Source of the DNA: Candidatus Pacearchaeota archaeon
GTDB lineage: Archaea > Nanoarchaeota > Nanoarchaeia > Pacearchaeales > GW2011-AR1
DNA length: 6,111 bases
Direction of reading: 5' to 3'
NCBI GenBank assembly: GCA_023228065.1
Contig: JALOBX010000019.1
Location: 1-6,111 of the forward strand
Of this stretch, positions 3 to 5,957 are shown one piece after another. The notes beneath the pieces were generated by a model. The model was not told the DNA's origin. It did not search any database and saw only the letters and a program-made list of their open reading frames with translations. The number at the start of each line of letters is the position of its first letter. Position 1 is the stretch's first letter. A program made the position numbers and the translations under genes.

Positions 3-224
3 AGTAAGAACATTAAATGGGAATATGAAAAAGACACTTTCAAACTAAAGGATACTACATATACTCCTGATTTTTATTTAAATGATAAAGATATGTATGT
101 TGAGATTAAAGGATTTATGCACGCTGATGCTTATTTTAAAATTAAGGAGTTTATATTGAGTAATCCTAATATTAAATATATGCTAATGACTAGAAGTGAT
201 TTGAAAAAATCGGGAGTAATCTAA
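3..224 (+). CDS. PD-(D/E)XK-type nuclease, C-terminal fragment (5' end outside window)
   Basis: An open frame runs from the left edge to a TAA at 222-224 and encodes 73 residues. The core is YTPDFYL (about residues 20-26 of the fragment), an eight-residue gap, then YVEIKG (32-37). This is the D...ExK arrangement of the PD-(D/E)XK nuclease superfamily, with the catalytic Asp in PDF and Glu/Lys in EIK. The segment before it (KWEYEKDTFKL) and the closing MLMTRSDLKKSGVI resemble small phage endonucleases and resolvase-like proteins of that fold. The family is inferred by eye from motif spacing. The N-terminal half is missing, so I cannot tell a stand-alone phage nuclease from the nuclease end of another homing endonuclease. 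Its stop overlaps the next start by one base (TAATG), so the two genes are probably co-transcribed and translationally coupled. Confidence 0.75.
   Translation, partial: SKNIKWEYEKDTFKLKDTTYTPDFYLNDKDMYVEIKGFMHADAYFKIKEFILSNPNIKYMLMTRSDLKKSGVI
212..216 (+). promoter_or_regulatory. Shine-Dalgarno site for the LamG gene
   Basis: GGGAG lies 7 bases before the ATG at 224, inside the last codons of the preceding nuclease gene. It fixes the start at 224 and fits a TAATG-coupled gene pair. Confidence 0.7.
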
Positions 225-1390
225 TGTCCCTTCCAGAAATAGATTTTTGTGAGTATGCGACAGATTTGGCTTGTCAACAGGCGTATGTAACGAATGATGC
301 AATAAGTAGTAAGGTTAAAGTATTACACCATTTTGACACAGATTCTTTTACTGATGAAGCTGGGCATAGTTTTACAAATTCTGGTTGTTCTCGTGATACT
401 ACCAATAAAATATTTGGTGCTGGAAGTTTATTAGTTCCTGATGGAGGGAATAAATCAATTTATGCTTCGGCTTCTACTGATTTTAATTTAGGTAGTAGTG
501 ATTTTACTATTTCATATAGAATTAGAAAATTAGATAGTGGTGCTAATTATAGAATTCGTGTAGCAGGGACACCAGATGCTGCTTGGACTACTGCTGGAAG
601 TAATTGGGTTATTGGAACTAAAGATTATGCAGGAACAAAGATGGGGGTATATTTTTATATTTCTAATGGGATTAGTTTTTTACAACTATTATCTACTACC
701 GAAGTAAATGATACAAATTGGCACACAATATCAATAGAGAGATTTGGTAATACTGTATATGCATATATTGATGGCATAAGAGATGCTACAACATTGGATG
801 TTACTGGATTTACTGTTAATAATGCTGCTAATGCTTTATATATTGGTATGCGTGGTATAGGTGATACACAAGGATTTTACGGAAATATAGATGAATTTCA
901 ACTTTTAGTTGGTTTAGCTCTTCGCCAAGGAGTAGCAAGTTATACTGTAGAAACGCAAGCATATCCTGTTAATCTTCAATCCTACTCCGAAGCCACGATT
1001 AAAACTCAAGGAAGTTATGCGTTGAAGGCGGTGGCGGCACAGACGGATAGTTTGAATAAGACATTAACTCGTACTGTCAGTCCAACGATAGATTTGAGCA
1101 ATCAAACTCAAATTAAATTTGATATACGTTCTAATAGAACTGGTAGTAATATTAAGATTGGATTTCATGATTCTGGAGGAACTACTACAGAATATACTCC
1201 AAATATAACTTCCGCTAATGAATTTCAAACTTTTACTATAGATATAAGTGGAGTGAGTAATGCTAATAAAGATGCGATAGATTCCATAATTTTGACCCAA
1301 GTAAATGCTGATAGTTCTACTACTTGGTATTTAGATAATGTTTTTGCTACATCTGGGTTCCCAAGAAGCTTTGGAGTTATAATAATCTAA
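224..1390 (+). CDS. LamG/concanavalin-A-like domain protein, probable phage virion or tail protein
   Basis: The 388-residue product has two beta-rich modules. Residues about 31-240 read as a LamG (Laminin_G_3/concanavalin A-like) jelly roll: an opening VLHHFD strand, KIFGAGSL, the central DFTISYRIR strand, NWHTISIERFGNTVYAYIDG (165-184), and a closing GFYGNIDEFQL (217-227). Residues about 250-375 look like a galactose-binding/CBM-type sandwich that opens with YSEATIKTQGSYALKAVA and closes with TTWYLDNVFA. There is no signal peptide or membrane segment. LamG modules are common in phage tail and appendage proteins, where they are thought to bind carbohydrate. That role is inferred here and no tail-fibre trimerisation region is visible. 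A GGGAG at 212-216 and the overlap with the preceding stop support the start. The last residues, FPRSFGVIII, look unlike the end of a domain and overlap the opposing gene by 14 bases. Confidence 0.8.
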   Translation: MSLPEIDFCEYATDLACQQAYVTNDAISSKVKVLHHFDTDSFTDEAGHSFTNSGCSRDTTNKIFGAGSLLVPDGGNKSIYASASTDFNLGSSDFTISYRIRKLDSGANYRIRVAGTPDAAWTTAGSNWVIGTKDYAGTKMGVYFYISNGISFLQLLSTTEVNDTNWHTISIERFGNTVYAYIDGIRDATTLDVTGFTVNNAANALYIGMRGIGDTQGFYGNIDEFQLLVGLALRQGVASYTVETQAYPVNLQSYSEATIKTQGSYALKAVAAQTDSLNKTLTRTVSPTIDLSNQTQIKFDIRSNRTGSNIKIGFHDSGGTTTEYTPNITSANEFQTFTIDISGVSNANKDAIDSIILTQVNADSSTTWYLDNVFATSGFPRSFGVIII

Positions 1391-1997
1391 TTTTACGTTT
1401 TAGTTGGCGGGAAGCACTAAAATGTTGAATCACTGGTTTATCTTGTATTTTTGGTGGGGAACCGTCGGGAAGTGTAGAAATCCAACAGTAGGTTACCGGC
1501 AAATAATAAATATTTATATCCTTTCTTTCTAAAATCAGATCCGAGAGCACCTTCTGTTCCCATTTATAGTCTTTTATTGCTCTATCATACCATTCTTTAA
1601 CAAATTCTCTTACTTTTTGAGTGTTGTTAAACCACATTGATCCTGTAAGTAGTTCTTTGTTATCTTCCTTATGCCCATACCACTCTTTCCACGAAAGATA
1701 ATGACACGCCAAATCAAACTCTTCTTTAATTTCATCAAATAATTTTGGGTAAGAACAAACTTCGGCATCTACATCAATACTTACCACATTATATTCAGAA
1801 TACTTTTCTAAAGTATGAAGTATGGTTAATGGTTTTTGAGCCACGTTTTTTAGCCAAGAACCTTTATTTTCTACTTCTTCTATATTATATTTAATGTTAA
1901 ATTTATCAAGACTTGGAATTAACTGTGAATATAAAATGTCTTTGTAGGGCGTTTGGGCGGTATAAAAACAGCTAACTAAAAATGGTTTGTTCTTCAT
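1377..1997 (-). CDS. Nucleotide-diphospho-sugar transferase-like protein (GT-A type)
   Basis: The 206-residue product has GT-A glycosyltransferase features. It has an N-terminal strand (PFLVSCFYTAQTPY), a hydrophobic strand ending in a DxD motif (VVSIDVDAEV, D75/D77) that would bind the metal and nucleotide-sugar phosphate, and TGSMWFNNT (118-126). It also has an acceptor-side WEQKVLSDL (146-154) and a late His (H192 in VIQHF). This order matches the small nucleotide-diphospho-sugar transferase families found in phages and bacterial glycan loci. Sugar and acceptor cannot be read from the sequence. The ATG at 1995-1997 lies inside the last codons of the upstream homing endonuclease gene in another frame, with a 26-base overlap. 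No convincing Shine-Dalgarno precedes it (only A/T-rich sequence), so translation probably depends on coupling. Its 3' end overlaps the convergent LamG gene by 14 bases. Confidence 0.75.
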   Translation of the reverse strand: MKNKPFLVSCFYTAQTPYKDILYSQLIPSLDKFNIKYNIEEVENKGSWLKNVAQKPLTILHTLEKYSEYNVVSIDVDAEVCSYPKLFDEIKEEFDLACHYLSWKEWYGHKEDNKELLTGSMWFNNTQKVREFVKEWYDRAIKDYKWEQKVLSDLILERKDINIYYLPVTYCWISTLPDGSPPKIQDKPVIQHFSASRQLKRKIRLL

Positions 1998-2970
1998 TAA
2001 ATTTTATTATTTTCTTAATTACTTTATTAATATTTCCTAATTCACATTCCCATATAACTAAAGTATCATAACCATGTTTTTTATAAGTTTCTAATCTTAA
2101 TTTATCTCTTTCTTGTGTATTTCTGTGCCAATAGTCTCCAAACAGTTCTATTATTTTTTTCTGCCCATTACAATTTATGAAATCGGGACAAAATCCACTA
2201 ATAATAATCTGACCATTCCCAACAAATTTATATTTATTTGTAAATAATGTATTAAGTAAGTTATTTAAAATAGTTTCTGGTTTATTTGGCTTTGTATTAA
2301 AAGAATTTAATATAAGTTTTATTTGTTTTTCTCTATATTTATCATCTTTCCATCTATCTATATTATCACAAGATTTACATTTATTTCCCTCTTTCCATAC
2401 TTCTTTACCACATCCATCAATACAATAATATTTCTTAGATGTTATTCCATCTTTCCAGTTAGGATTGTTTTCTGGAATAGACATTCTAAATTTAGCCCAA
2501 CATTTCTGACACATATTAGTTTTTGAATCATACCAAATTTCTTTACCACAATTCACACAATATTTTATTGCTAATGTTCTGCCATCTTTATATCCGGGAC
2601 CATTTTTCCCCGCTAATTTATGATTACCAAAATTAGGATTATTTTCACCTTTATACTCGCCACGTTTAGATTTGCAAGCTACACATTGACAGCTTGATTC
2701 GTGAGAATAGTTTTTATAACATACTTTACATCTTTTAGCGTAAATATTTTTAACTTCTTTTCCACAATCTATACATTTTGATTTATTATCCTTAAAATAC
2801 GGATTATTTTTACCGAGTGTTTCGCCTCTCTTAGCTTTACAAAAAGGGCATCCACAATTATTTTTATGAGGTTTTAAATTTCCTCTTTGTCTACAACTTC
2901 CACATAGACCAGACTTACTGCTCCTAGTTATTTCTTTTCCACAAAATCTACAAAAATATTGTTTTTTCAT
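1972..2970 (-). CDS. Homing endonuclease: zinc ribbons, NUMOD3-like motifs and Vsr-like nuclease domain
   Basis: This is a 332-residue protein read from the ATG at 2968-2970. A TTG at 2979 would add three residues, but the ATG overlaps the preceding TAA (TAATG). Residues 1-205 hold four CxxC...CxxC-type zinc ribbons: C7/C10/C23/C26, C66/C69/C81/C84, C138/C141/C154/C157, and C183/C187/C198/C201. Extra Cys clusters lie at 39-44 and 94-99. Between them are NUMOD3-like N-x-P motifs (GKNNPYF 53-59, GENNPNF 108-114, GKNGPGY 121-127, PENNPNW 166-172). Residues 230-325 match the Vsr/EDxHD nuclease fold: PET (E232), PDF (D263), IELFGDYWH (E275, D279, H282) and a Vsr-like LVIWECEL (304-311). The family includes phage homing endonucleases such as I-Bth0305I. 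It is probably a free-standing selfish gene that cuts HEG-less alleles of this locus. It separates two glycosyltransferase genes that would otherwise be adjacent. Confidence 0.85.
   Translation of the reverse strand: MKKQYFCRFCGKEITRSSKSGLCGSCRQRGNLKPHKNNCGCPFCKAKRGETLGKNNPYFKDNKSKCIDCGKEVKNIYAKRCKVCYKNYSHESSCQCVACKSKRGEYKGENNPNFGNHKLAGKNGPGYKDGRTLAIKYCVNCGKEIWYDSKTNMCQKCWAKFRMSIPENNPNWKDGITSKKYYCIDGCGKEVWKEGNKCKSCDNIDRWKDDKYREKQIKLILNSFNTKPNKPETILNNLLNTLFTNKYKFVGNGQIIISGFCPDFINCNGQKKIIELFGDYWHRNTQERDKLRLETYKKHGYDTLVIWECELGNINKVIKKIIKFNEEQTIFS
1998..2970 (-). mobile_element. Inferred free-standing HEG insertion between two glycosyltransferase genes
   Basis: The segment starts at the TAATG junction that ends the GT2-like gene and finishes at the ATG of the next glycosyltransferase gene. 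Removing it would restore a direct TAATG overlap of the two genes, the same style as elsewhere in the array. The downstream gene now starts without a clear ribosome-binding site, as expected if the insert took over the original one. Boundaries are inferred from the junctions. No target duplication or inverted repeats are seen, as is normal for homing. Confidence 0.5.
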
Positions 2971-3710
2971 TATAACCAATGACCTTTATTTGATTGAGTA
3001 ATTGTGGTAATATTTTCTTTTGAAAAACTCTCCACTTTATTTAGTCTTTTATTTTGTATAATATTATCTTTTATCCAATTTCCTTCAAGAATACTTCTGT
3101 CAAAAGTATAATATCCACTTCTGAACACAGTTCCACTGCTATCATGAGCTTTTTGATGATTTACAATTACTGGAACTTTAGATATTTGCAGTTCCCCCCC
3201 AGCTTCATACACTCTCATTACTACATCATTTTCAGATTGCCCGCAAACGAAATTTTTATCGTATCCCCCCAATTCATTAAAAAACTCTCTATCCATTACT
3301 CCAAAAGGAGCCATTCTTGGAGCATTTGGGTCTCGCCCCCTTAATCTATGCCATTCAGTAATATCCCTACCATCTTCAATAGTTCTAAACGCCGCCACTA
3401 ACTTTCTATTGTTAAAAGACTTAAAAAAAGCATACATATCATCTAAAGCGTGTGGTGGATAGGTGGAATCATCACTTCCCCAAGATACTAATTCACCAAC
3501 ACTTTCATTAAAACATATTTGATAACACTGAGCAGGCTTGCAAGAAGAATATATATATTTTAGTTCTGGATATTTAGATATATCAAACTGAGGTCTAACA
3601 TTTCCACATAAAATTATTTCATATTTTAAATCATTACTTCTTAAAGAATTTAATAGTTCTTGCCATATCTGTGGTCTTATAGCTGAACAGCATAATGAGA
3701 ATTTGGTCAT
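2970..3710 (-). CDS. Glycosyltransferase, GT-A fold, GT2-like
   Basis: The product is 246 residues from the preferred start. An N-terminal strand (KFSLCCSAIRP) is followed by a second strand (YEIILCGN, 30-37). Then comes SWGSDDSTYPP, whose DD (80-81) takes the place of the metal-binding DxD of GT-A enzymes. Downstream, LGGYDKNFVCGQSENDVVMRVYEAGG (a region from about 147 to 172) corresponds to the GGYD...E(D/N)D..R..xxG acceptor/base region of GT2 enzymes, and H185 lies in VNHQKAHD. No membrane segments are visible, so it is probably cytosolic. The start is set at the ATG at 3708-3710 because GGAG lies six bases upstream and because this ATG overlaps a TGA as ATGA. An ATG four codons earlier (3722) has no good ribosome site. 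Three G-runs (7, 6 and 5) fall inside the gene. Its stop overlaps the next start as TAATG. Confidence 0.82.
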   Translation of the reverse strand: MTKFSLCCSAIRPQIWQELLNSLRSNDLKYEIILCGNVRPQFDISKYPELKYIYSSCKPAQCYQICFNESVGELVSWGSDDSTYPPHALDDMYAFFKSFNNRKLVAAFRTIEDGRDITEWHRLRGRDPNAPRMAPFGVMDREFFNELGGYDKNFVCGQSENDVVMRVYEAGGELQISKVPVIVNHQKAHDSSGTVFRSGYYTFDRSILEGNWIKDNIIQNKRLNKVESFSKENITTITQSNKGHWL

Positions 3711-4002: not shown

Positions 4003-5550
4003 TTAATACCCACGTGGTATGCCCCAATAATCACATTTATTGCCACAATAAGGTACTTCGTTTCTTTTTCCTTCAACGTGTTTTTTCAACATAAAAAGTC
4101 TTTTTTTACTATTCCATAATTCAAATATACTTTTTTCTTTTATATTTCCCAATACAAGTTCTCCTTCTGGGTCAAATCTGACACACACAGAAACATTGCC
4201 AAATCTATCTATAGATAATTTACTTAAAATTTCTAAGCAAATTCCATGTTCGGGGATTACTGGCGGTTTTTGGTAGTTAATACTTCCTTTTGGATCATGT
4301 AAAATTCTATTAACATGTAATAAATTAAAGTTTTTATAGGGTTCTTCATCTACTTTTCCTACAAACCTTAAAACTACTCTTGGTTTTAAATCCTTTTTTA
4401 AAATTAAAAATTTTTCAATATTATTGTATTGTAATTCTCGTTCTTCTTTTGTATCTCCCTCAATTATAGAAATACTAATTACATCTAAATTATTTATTAT
4501 TTCTGGAGCTTTTTCAACCAATTTTTTACCGTTGGTTACTAAATATGTTATACAATGCTTAAATAAACGAACAGCTTCTTTAAATCTAGGATATAAAAGA
4601 CTTTCACCATTATTATGGAAAGCAACTACGGTATTTTTTGGTAATTGTTTTGAGATTTTTTTAAGTAATTCAAAATCAATAAATCCATAATTTTGCTTAC
4701 CATATTTTCTTTCTCTTTCTCTTCTTCCGCAAAATACACAATTTTTATCGCAGAGAGAACTTAATTCTATGTTTAGATGATTTAATCCATAACTACTATA
4801 ATATTGACAAGTCCATCCTTTATAAGAACTTTTTTTCCTGCCTGTAGCCATAGCAATTAAATAATCATAAGTTAATTTATGTTCTTTACAAAAATTTAAT
4901 AAACATCTAGTAAAAAACTTTTCCCCACTTGGAGAAATTATTAAATATTCTTTGGCATTAGGGTTATTTTCTCCTTTAAATAAACCCAATAAACCACTTT
5001 TTACATTCATTTTAGAGGTATTTTTAGATATTTTATTTTTTATTTCTTTAGCTTTTTCTACGCCATAAACTTCTTCAAATGTTTTATTTTTCTTTTTATT
5101 GCTAAATATACGACTAACTTTTAACTCTATAGCCTTTTCTTTTCCATATCTTTCTTCGTAAGTTTTATTTTTACTAAATTTACTCATTTTTTCCTTTGAT
5201 TTTATGGAGTGTTTAAATCCACTAGTTCCTTCTCCTCCATCAGATAAATTTAATAATGTGTTTCTTCCTATAAGACTTATTATTTTTTTCTCCAAATTAA
5301 ATGATTCCACTTCAAATAAATTATCTTTTACTATAATTATAATTGGATGTAAATTTTTCTTTATGATTTTTTGTATTTTATAAAATAAATGATTATTCCC
5401 ATTTGCATTTCTATTTAAATGAGCTTTATACCTATTTCCATTTCCTTTCCCAACATAAAATGGTTCATAGTCAAACTCATATTCCCCATATTTGTATTTG
5501 CCAGGTTTTCTAGGGTCTAAATAGACATATACATAATACTTATTTTCCAT
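4003..5550 (-). CDS. GIY-YIG homing endonuclease fused in frame to a radical SAM/SPASM-like enzyme
   Basis: One uninterrupted 515-residue frame. Residues 1-251 form a GIY-YIG endonuclease: KYYVYVYLDP (GIY part), PFYVGKG (30-36, YIG part), R40, helix Glu (E87), and N101 in NLSDGGEG. NUMOD3-like GFKHSIKSKEKMSK (111-124) follows, then NNPN (195-198) and a helix-turn-helix/NUMOD-like region ending YKGWTCQYY (243-251), a normal end for such endonucleases. Residues 253-515 form a radical SAM enzyme: the CX3CX2C cluster C267/C271/C274 in SSLCDKNCVFCG, NNGESLLYP (313-321, the GGE-like SAM-binding strand), and a C-terminal SPASM/twitch-like domain with C438, C456, C502 and C506. There is no in-frame ATG near the domain border. 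GGAG precedes the ATG, which overlaps the VOC stop as TAATG. The substrate is unknown; with its neighbours, sugar or peptide modification is possible (inference). Confidence 0.85.
   Translation of the reverse strand: MENKYYVYVYLDPRKPGKYKYGEYEFDYEPFYVGKGNGNRYKAHLNRNANGNNHLFYKIQKIIKKNLHPIIIIVKDNLFEVESFNLEKKIISLIGRNTLLNLSDGGEGTSGFKHSIKSKEKMSKFSKNKTYEERYGKEKAIELKVSRIFSNKKKNKTFEEVYGVEKAKEIKNKISKNTSKMNVKSGLLGLFKGENNPNAKEYLIISPSGEKFFTRCLLNFCKEHKLTYDYLIAMATGRKKSSYKGWTCQYYSSYGLNHLNIELSSLCDKNCVFCGRRERERKYGKQNYGFIDFELLKKISKQLPKNTVVAFHNNGESLLYPRFKEAVRLFKHCITYLVTNGKKLVEKAPEIINNLDVISISIIEGDTKEERELQYNNIEKFLILKKDLKPRVVLRFVGKVDEEPYKNFNLLHVNRILHDPKGSINYQKPPVIPEHGICLEILSKLSIDRFGNVSVCVRFDPEGELVLGNIKEKSIFELWNSKKRLFMLKKHVEGKRNEVPYCGNKCDYWGIPRGY
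4798..5550 (-). mobile_element. Inferred HEG insertion at the 5' end of the radical SAM gene
   Basis: Codons 1-251 of the fused gene make up an apparently entire GIY-YIG/NUMOD3 endonuclease. They begin at the TAATG junction with the VOC gene and end within two codons of where a radical SAM protein of this type would normally begin (SYGLNHLNIELSSLC). The natural reading is that a homing endonuclease gene landed at the start codon and fused with its host gene. The boundary at 4797/4798 is approximate. Confidence 0.55.
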
Positions 5551-5957
5551 TATTCTCCACCGTTTACAGGTTCACACATTTCCAACATATTTTTTTCAGG
5601 GTCTCGGCAAAACATTACTTTATGAGTTCCACTTTTGTCTAATTTGATTTCGGAACAATCTATTTCAAATTCTCTTAACTTGTTTCTCATATATTGCACA
5701 TTTTCTACAGTAAAAGCTATATGATTAAAAGAATCGTTAGTTTTTTGGGGTAACCAATATAATTCTAATATATCTCCACTATCAGTAGCTAATTTGACCC
5801 AAGTTAGGGAATCTAATCCCAAAAGAGACTTAATAAAGTCTCCTTCCTCCACTTCACTATTTACATAGTGCAAACCTAATACTTTTCTATAGAAGTAGTC
5901 GGCTCGTTCCAGATTATCCACACATAAGCAGCTATGTCTAATGTTTTTTATACTCAT
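5550..5957 (-). CDS. VOC family (glyoxalase/bleomycin resistance fold) metalloenzyme
   Basis: The 135 residues, a typical length for one VOC protein, carry two beta-alpha-beta-beta-beta modules. Candidate metal ligands sit at the expected places: H8 (NIRHSCLCV), E65 (DILELYW), H79 (FNHIAFTV) and E126 (NMLEMCEP). The pattern ADYFYRKVLGL (19-29) is the usual first helix, and FCRDPEKNMLEM (116-127) is the usual last hairpin. Members include glyoxalase I, methylmalonyl-CoA epimerase, dioxygenases and resistance proteins. With all four ligands present, an enzyme is more likely than a binding protein, but the reaction cannot be assigned. Its ATG overlaps the TGA of the aminotransferase (ATGA), and its stop overlaps the next start (TAATG), so it is tightly coupled on both sides. 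The nearest purine-rich ribosome site, GAGG at 5971-5974, is 13 bases upstream, which is long and suggests reliance on coupling. Confidence 0.85.
   Translation of the reverse strand: MSIKNIRHSCLCVDNLERADYFYRKVLGLHYVNSEVEEGDFIKSLLGLDSLTWVKLATDSGDILELYWLPQKTNDSFNHIAFTVENVQYMRNKLREFEIDCSEIKLDKSGTHKVMFCRDPEKNMLEMCEPVNGGE
5555..5561 (-). promoter_or_regulatory. Shine-Dalgarno site inherited by the endonuclease-radical SAM fusion
   Basis: GGTGGAG on the minus strand, in the last VOC codons, ends four bases before the ATG at 5550-5548. It probably served the radical SAM gene before the endonuclease was inserted (inference). Confidence 0.6.

What the first reader, a model, noticed from the sequence alone, without database searches (positions are those of the whole stretch)
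4003..5550. Whole homing endonuclease fused in frame to the N-terminus of a radical SAM enzyme
The GIY-YIG/NUMOD3 endonuclease appears complete up to its usual C-terminal YKGW..QY ending. The radical SAM protein appears complete from its usual first strand (LNHLNIELSSLC). They are joined within about two residues, with no stop and no in-frame ATG at the border. Intron HEGs are often fused to the upstream exon. Fusion to the N-terminus of a catalytic host enzyme, with no intein splice motifs, is unusual. The enzyme would have to work with a 250-residue nuclease tag, be proteolytically freed, or be inactive. The fusion could also give the HEG shelter if the enzyme is needed.
Basis: partly seen in the sequence, partly recalled or inferred. 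Interest (0 to 1): 0.85.

Follow-up and report, generated by a model that had tools for sequence, protein, structure and literature searches.

The report
Homing nuclease fused to phage enzyme
A selfish DNA-cutting gene in a virus-like genome has become joined, as one continuous protein, to the front of an enzyme that probably helps make an unusual sugar; the same joint protein occurs in two other, distant sequences, so it is an old, kept arrangement and not a sequencing slip.

Summary
ORF 5550-4003(-), 515 aa, is a whole GIY-YIG endonuclease (about 1-252) read straight into a whole radical SAM/SPASM enzyme (about 255-515), with no stop and no nearby start. An assembly artefact is very unlikely: two other database proteins (P0001, P0002) share the architecture and junction spacing at 59% and 50% identity. 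Trees of each half group the three fusions (moderate support), which also share a nuclease-loop deletion not seen in 162 other HEGs measured: one old fusion is likely. Active-site residues of both halves are kept. New: in viral contig L085 a GIY-YIG HEG of another subfamily sits at the same border as a separate ORF overlapping the radical SAM start, an intermediate state; and just after the fusion's stop lies a roughly 50-codon relic of a second radical SAM gene's end, as if the fused cassette had replaced a resident allele. Best reading: a homing gene that took over the enzyme's translation start, so the enzyme is made only by reading the nuclease, and that travels with its own copy of the enzyme. 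Neither activity nor homing is shown.

The parts
4003..5550 (-). Fused ORF, 515 aa: GIY-YIG homing endonuclease + radical SAM/SPASM enzyme
   Evidence: same architecture in P0001 and P0002
4795..5550 (-). Nuclease half (residues 1-252); Y6/Y8/Y10, Y32-V33-G34, R40, E87, N101 kept; ends in YKGWTCQYY
   Evidence: PF22945 E=4.7e-10; invariant in 3 of 3 fusions; 35 of 36 conserved columns kept
4003..4788 (-). Radical SAM/SPASM half (residues 255-515); C267, C271, C274 core cluster; C438, C456, C502, C506 further invariant Cys
5550..5550 (-). One-base overlap of the VOC stop with the fusion's ATG (TAATGG): possible translational coupling
   Evidence: same arrangement as nrdA/mobE UAAUGA (PMC2988022)
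3843..3998 (-). Relic: about 50 codons of the C-terminal end of a second radical SAM/SPASM gene, in another frame, with its own stop; similarity is clear from about 3983
   Evidence: SPASM E=0.032, below cut-off; 22 of 44 residues identical to the window's own enzyme end, 24 of 44 to L085; 91 of 142 bases
5550..5957 (-). VOC (glyoxalase-superfamily) gene upstream; lies directly before radical SAM in HEG-free loci L099, L125, L131, L134, L141
   Evidence: PF00903
5954..6109 (-). End of an aminotransferase gene, cut by the window edge
   Evidence: tblastn to the end of the class III aminotransferase-like gene of L099

Best explanation
A phage-type GIY-YIG homing endonuclease gene inserted, probably once and long ago, at the VOC/radical SAM gene border of a viral sugar-modification cassette. 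It took a start that overlaps the VOC stop and replaced the radical SAM start codon, so that the two genes became one frame. SHOWN: the fusion, its occurrence in three divergent proteins, kept active-site residues in both halves, HEG-free relatives with the empty site, and a relic of a second radical SAM gene end. INFERRED: both halves work in one two-domain chain; the nuclease still cuts HEG-free alleles (or nearby DNA) of co-infecting relatives, and repair copies the HEG together with its own enzyme copy; the relic is the end of a resident allele displaced in such an event; the fusion shelters the HEG, because a stop or frameshift in it would also remove the enzyme.
For: Same fusion in P0001 and P0002 over 100% of the query. 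The three fusions form one group in the radical SAM trees (SH-aLRT 86; 89/93) and in the nuclease tree (92). Shared loop of 7 residues against 10-16 in 162 other nucleases. Conserved columns kept: nuclease 35, 35, 33 of 36; radical SAM 57, 55, 56 of 60. Empty site VOC|radical SAM in 5 of 65 loci, 7-nt overlap in viral L099. TAATG overlap. L085: another HEG at the same border, overlapping the radical SAM TTG start. Relic at 3998-3843; a second family hit, weak, in only 1 of 65 loci. Equal GC3 of the two halves (0.138, 0.135), below VOC (0.234, p=0.009).
Against: No tree support reaches the starred level. Only 3 members known, all from short or unplaced contigs. The fused enzymes keep slightly fewer conserved columns than most HEG-free ones (121 of 131 keep 58-60 of 60). 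Other window genes have GC3 as low as the fusion, and the relic's GC3 does not differ significantly from the fusion's (p=0.20). The relic is short and could stem from a decayed second gene. No cutting, homing or enzyme activity was tested. L085 is 1 of 19 viral loci; 18 had their neighbours printed and no other HEG directly upstream was recognised by eye.
Confidence: 0.6

Rival explanations
1. Read-through in decay: the HEG lost its stop, and the nuclease, the enzyme or both are inactive; the joint protein is a transient by-product.
For: Fused radical SAM halves keep 55-57 of 60 near-invariant columns, where 121 of 131 HEG-free ones keep 58-60. The middle of the nuclease half is poorly modelled.
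Against: Fusion shared by three proteins only 50-59% identical to the window's or to it, open frames throughout, all cluster Cys and the nuclease motif residues kept.
Confidence: 0.15
2. Two separate products: the enzyme is released by internal translation start or by proteolysis at the border, so the fusion is only on paper.
For: In L085 the enzyme starts at a TTG with AAGGA a few bases before it inside the HEG's last codons. The window has an ATG at codon 234 and P0001 a Met near its junction.
Against: No start codon with a Shine-Dalgarno-like sequence at the window junction; P0001's Met lies elsewhere and P0002 has none at the border, so no conserved internal start. No protease site was looked for.
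Confidence: 0.12
3. Domestication: the nuclease half no longer homes and serves the host cassette or the phage in another way (for example as a DNA-binding regulator, or as a weapon against rivals).
For: Long retention in one gene context. Intron HEGs of T4 also act as autorepressors (PMC2988022, passages). An intron HEG of another phage aids competition (PMC11620839, abstract in the listing).
Against: Full nuclease motif kept in 3 of 3; the relic suggests gene replacement; no direct evidence of a regulatory or competitive role.
Confidence: 0.1
4. The relic is unrelated to homing: a tandem second radical SAM gene decayed beside the fusion.
For: The relic is clearly a second family member (22 of 44 identical).
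Against: A second family hit occurs in only 1 of 65 loci, and weakly; the held DNA is 5-17 kb per locus, so distant copies would be missed.
Confidence: 0.35

Closest known systems
Fungal mitochondrial mobile ORFs that make hybrid genes (Glomus atp6, atp9, cox2, nad3; Allomyces atp6; PMC3630166, passages read)
   Same: A homing nuclease gene travels with a replacement piece of its host gene, can be in phase with it, and leaves the native gene end as a relic downstream.
   Different: There the inserted C-terminus comes first and the nuclease follows; here the nuclease is N-terminal and a complete enzyme follows. Mitochondria, not phages.
Free-standing phage HEGs such as T4 mobE and the seg genes (PMC2988022, passages read)
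   Same: GIY-YIG in the seg genes, insertion at gene borders, one-base stop/start overlap as in nrdA/mobE, cut sites away from the HEG.
   Different: Those are separate ORFs; here there is no stop before the next gene.
mobE insertion splitting nrdA of phage Aeh1 (PMC2988022, passages read)
   Same: A HEG enters an enzyme gene and the enzyme survives.
   Different: There the enzyme is cut into two chains; here it stays whole and gains an N-terminal nuclease.
L085 (IMG/VR): HEG directly upstream of radical SAM
   Same: Same border, GIY-YIG HEG, radical SAM start tied to the HEG end.
   Different: Separate ORFs; HEG of another GIY-YIG subfamily (phrog_314).
GIY-YIG domain fusions surveyed in PMC1564403 (passages read)
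   Same: GIY-YIG domain joined to other enzymes; the authors note that many fusions may come from the domain's mobility.
   Different: Partners in the passages read are nucleic-acid enzymes; the word 'radical' has 0 occurrences in that text.
BtrN, radical SAM dehydrogenase
   Different: About 21% identity; no nuclease; substrate of the window enzyme unknown.

Membership tests
GIY-YIG homing endonuclease (PF22945 type) | Catalytic motif residues (Tyr, YVG, Arg, Glu, Asn) | tested here: met
   Invariant in 3 of 3 fusions; 35 of 36 conserved columns in the window protein. Which residues are catalytic is partly recalled; Arg, Glu and Asn are named in PMC2988022
GIY-YIG homing endonuclease (PF22945 type) | Site-specific cutting that drives inheritance of its own gene | not testable with these tools
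   Needs cut assays and phage crosses
Free-standing phage HEG | Own ORF with own stop | tested here: not met
   Frame runs on into radical SAM
Intron-encoded HEG | Lies in a group I intron | tested here: inconclusive
   No Rfam match up to E=1 in the window; HEG frame continues directly into the enzyme
Intein | Splicing domain with host protein on both sides | tested here: not met
   No intein family in Pfam at E<=0.1; no host protein part before the nuclease, whose match begins at residue 5
Radical SAM/SPASM (BtrN-like) | CxxxCxxC cluster motif | tested here: met
   C267, C271, C274 invariant in 21 of 21
Radical SAM/SPASM (BtrN-like) | SPASM/twitch domain with further cluster Cys | tested here: met
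   PF13186 E=1.5e-7; C438, C456, C502, C506 invariant in 21 of 21
Radical SAM/SPASM (BtrN-like) | Sugar or aminocyclitol dehydrogenase activity | not testable with these tools
   Substrate unknown
mORF-type gene hybrid (fungal) | Native gene end left as relic downstream | tested here: met
   About 50-codon radical SAM tail just after the fusion; its origin as the native gene is inferred
mORF-type gene hybrid (fungal) | HEG lies after the inserted gene end | tested here: not met
   Here the HEG lies before the gene; compare

The most novel reading that the evidence does not exclude
A self-contained replacement homing element: the nuclease and a full working copy of the gene it attacks are one polypeptide. 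Each homing event would swap the victim's enzyme for the element's own (leaving only a tail, as at 3998-3843), and the enzyme can never be made without the nuclease. This would be selfish addiction by translational fusion, without intron or intein.
Probability: 0.35. Interest if true: 0.75.

Novelty: new variant of a known kind. Interest (0 to 1): 0.56.

Why it matters
Selfish homing genes usually spare their host genes by sitting in introns, inteins or between genes. A lasting fusion to the front of a catalytic enzyme, kept over deep divergence, suggests another way: take over the gene's start and supply the gene. It gives a testable account of how such genes may escape decay, and HEG-free, HEG-adjacent (L085) and HEG-fused alleles of one enzyme form a ready series for experiment.

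Tried and rejected
Assembly slip: judged very unlikely because two other proteins have the same fusion; reads were not seen. Intron: no Rfam match. Intein: no Pfam intein match in the window protein. Several independent fusions: disfavoured, not excluded, by trees and the shared loop deletion. I first suspected conflicting trees of the two halves (P0001 with P0002 at 99 in the nuclease tree; the window nearer to P0001 by radical SAM identity); clade tests on the radical SAM tree rejected neither of the two pairings tested, the third being the weakly supported best tree, so I dropped it; no such test was run on the nuclease tree. Loop count: 20 of 185 rows were not measured; one of them (P0076) looks shorter than the usual range by eye, though not as short as the fusions.

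Led nowhere: no own genome held; no blastn match of the window in the phage records; a 37-base junction pattern absent from IMG/VR; tblastn of the fusion against phage records matched only the nuclease half (12 records). The longest HEG-containing frames among the viral HEG loci (25 listed, seven printed) show no recognisable host enzyme by eye; not scanned with Pfam. BFVD structure search: the 50 rows shown name nucleases and radical SAM proteins separately. Literature: nine searches listed no paper that, from title and abstract, treats a HEG-radical SAM fusion; the library lacks most subscription journals. Only passages of PMC2988022, PMC3630166, PMC10448857 and PMC1564403 were read.

Full report

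NOT AN ARTEFACT. P0001 (504 aa, 59%) and P0002 (518 aa, 50%) match over 100% of the query, while 18 other radical SAM proteins (P0003-P0020) among the 120 rows listed of 335 cover only about half. A search aimed at the radical SAM half gave 65 hits; only these two carry the nuclease domain. A profile search again listed only these two fusions among 120 rows of 391. These searches score a word-limited set of candidates, so more fusions may exist. All three fusions have the same spacing from the KGW motif to the first radical SAM strand. For the pairs window-P0001, window-P0002 and P0001-P0002, identity is 54, 50 and 55% in the nuclease half and 68, 60 and 58% in the enzyme half.

ORIGIN. HEG-free relatives typically start at about window residue 252 ('M..nGL..(V/I)N.EL'). 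Of 65 loci (19 viral, 46 from genomes), 60 could be read at the cluster motif. One of these is cut off there (L136); in the other 59 the open frame before the motif is 14-131 codons. No locus gave tblastn hits to both halves. Two more contigs (L146, L147, identical over the 3 kb compared) are also HEG-free. VOC hits lie in 27 of the 65 loci, directly before radical SAM in five: a 7-nt overlap in viral L099, 3 nt apart in L125 and L134, 23 nt in L141, 59 nt to a TTG in L131. In the other 22, VOC lies elsewhere in the held DNA. The nuclease thus sits at the VOC/radical SAM border. Its ATG shares one base with the VOC stop (TAATGG), the arrangement described for nrdA/mobE (UAAUGA; PMC2988022, passage).

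ONE FUSION EVENT IS LIKELY. The three fusions form one side of a branch in a 134-row radical SAM tree (SH-aLRT 86), a 25-row careful tree of chosen rows (89/93) and a 185-row nuclease tree (92); none reaches the starred level. A shared character supports this: from the IG motif to the catalytic Asn the fusions have 7 residues, 162 other nucleases 10-16 (20 of 185 rows not measured).

BOTH HALVES LOOK KEPT. Of 36 nuclease columns conserved in at least 80% of 182 relatives, the fusions keep 35, 35 and 33. Of 60 radical SAM columns conserved in at least 95% of 131 HEG-free relatives, they keep 57, 55 and 56, where 121 of the 131 keep 58-60. So the fused enzymes are somewhat more divergent, but no cluster Cys is lost.

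AN INTERMEDIATE. In viral contig L085, whose radical SAM protein has the highest local identity to the window's (63%), the gene directly upstream is a GIY-YIG homing endonuclease of another subfamily (phrog_314, E=7.9e-36; NCBIfam TIGR01453, E=5.7e-14, just under its cut-off; PF01541 only E=0.0045, below cut-off). Its stop overlaps the radical SAM TTG start (TTGA), with AAGGA six bases before the TTG. A weak nuclease-like scrap lies further upstream (7027-7329; phrog_12434, E=2.5e-6; no Pfam hit). So a second kind of HEG has entered this border, and there the enzyme's start already lies in the nuclease's last codons. Neighbours were printed for 18 of the 19 viral loci (not L091); by eye no other HEG stands directly upstream.

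A RELIC. About 20 bases after the fusion's stop, another frame begins to resemble the C-terminus of a radical SAM/SPASM gene and continues for about 50 codons to its own stop (to 3843; SPASM E=0.032, below cut-off). It is identical in 22 of 44 residues to the window's own end and in 24 of 44 to L085, and in 91 of 142 bases to the fusion's end, so it is no fresh duplication. Only 1 of 65 loci shows a second family hit, a weak one. The simplest reading is a resident radical SAM gene overwritten by the incoming fused cassette down to its last fifth; this resembles the displaced native gene ends left by fungal mobile ORFs (PMC3630166, passages). GC3 is equal in the two fused halves (0.138, 0.135) and lower than in VOC (0.234, p=0.009), but other window genes are as low, and the relic (0.204) does not differ significantly from the fusion (p=0.20).

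FUNCTION OF THE ENZYME. BtrN is the nearest solved relative; that it oxidises an aminocyclitol is recalled, though the entry title names 2-DOIA. In viral relatives the gene lies near sialic- or pseudaminic-acid-like synthase and cytidylyltransferase genes (L083, L085; best NCBIfam hits TIGR03569 and TIGR03584, both below cut-off). The window adds two glycosyltransferase-like genes (one below its Pfam cut-off) and a tail-fibre-like protein. A role in making an unusual sugar is likely; the substrate is unknown.

VERDICT. Observation confirmed; interpretation supported and extended. I file it as a new variant of phage homing endonuclease gene, in translational fusion with an enzyme. Activity of either half, and homing itself, remain to be shown.

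Noticed in passing
window 1972-2979 (-): A second nuclease-like gene: zinc-ribbon-like repeats followed by a DUF559 (E=3.9e-7) domain, lying between two glycosyltransferase-like genes; possibly another mobile nuclease.
   Followed up: no
protein P0034 (614 aa; no window coordinates): A nearly whole nicotinate/nicotinamide phosphoribosyltransferase (PF17767, PF04095; residues 6-378) is followed in frame by the same kind of GIY-YIG nuclease (from 382): the mirror order, nuclease at the C-terminus of an enzyme.
   Followed up: partly
window 3-224 (+): End of a short phage endonuclease-like protein (DUF1064/TnsA-like); a homologue lies in L087 near radical SAM, VOC and nucleotide-sugar-transferase-like genes.
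   Followed up: no
window 224-1390 (+): Laminin-G-like protein with weak hits to phage baseplate and tail-fibre families, supporting a viral origin of the window.
   Followed up: no
L099 10943-11362 and 11853-13028: Endonuclease VII-like gene (E=6.5e-21), followed by a gene that looks like a TnpB-type transposase accessory protein by eye, near the HEG-free VOC/radical SAM site.
   Followed up: no
L140 8001-8779: The radical SAM gene of this Desulfobacterales genome appears to be broken by a frame change near 8270.
   Followed up: no
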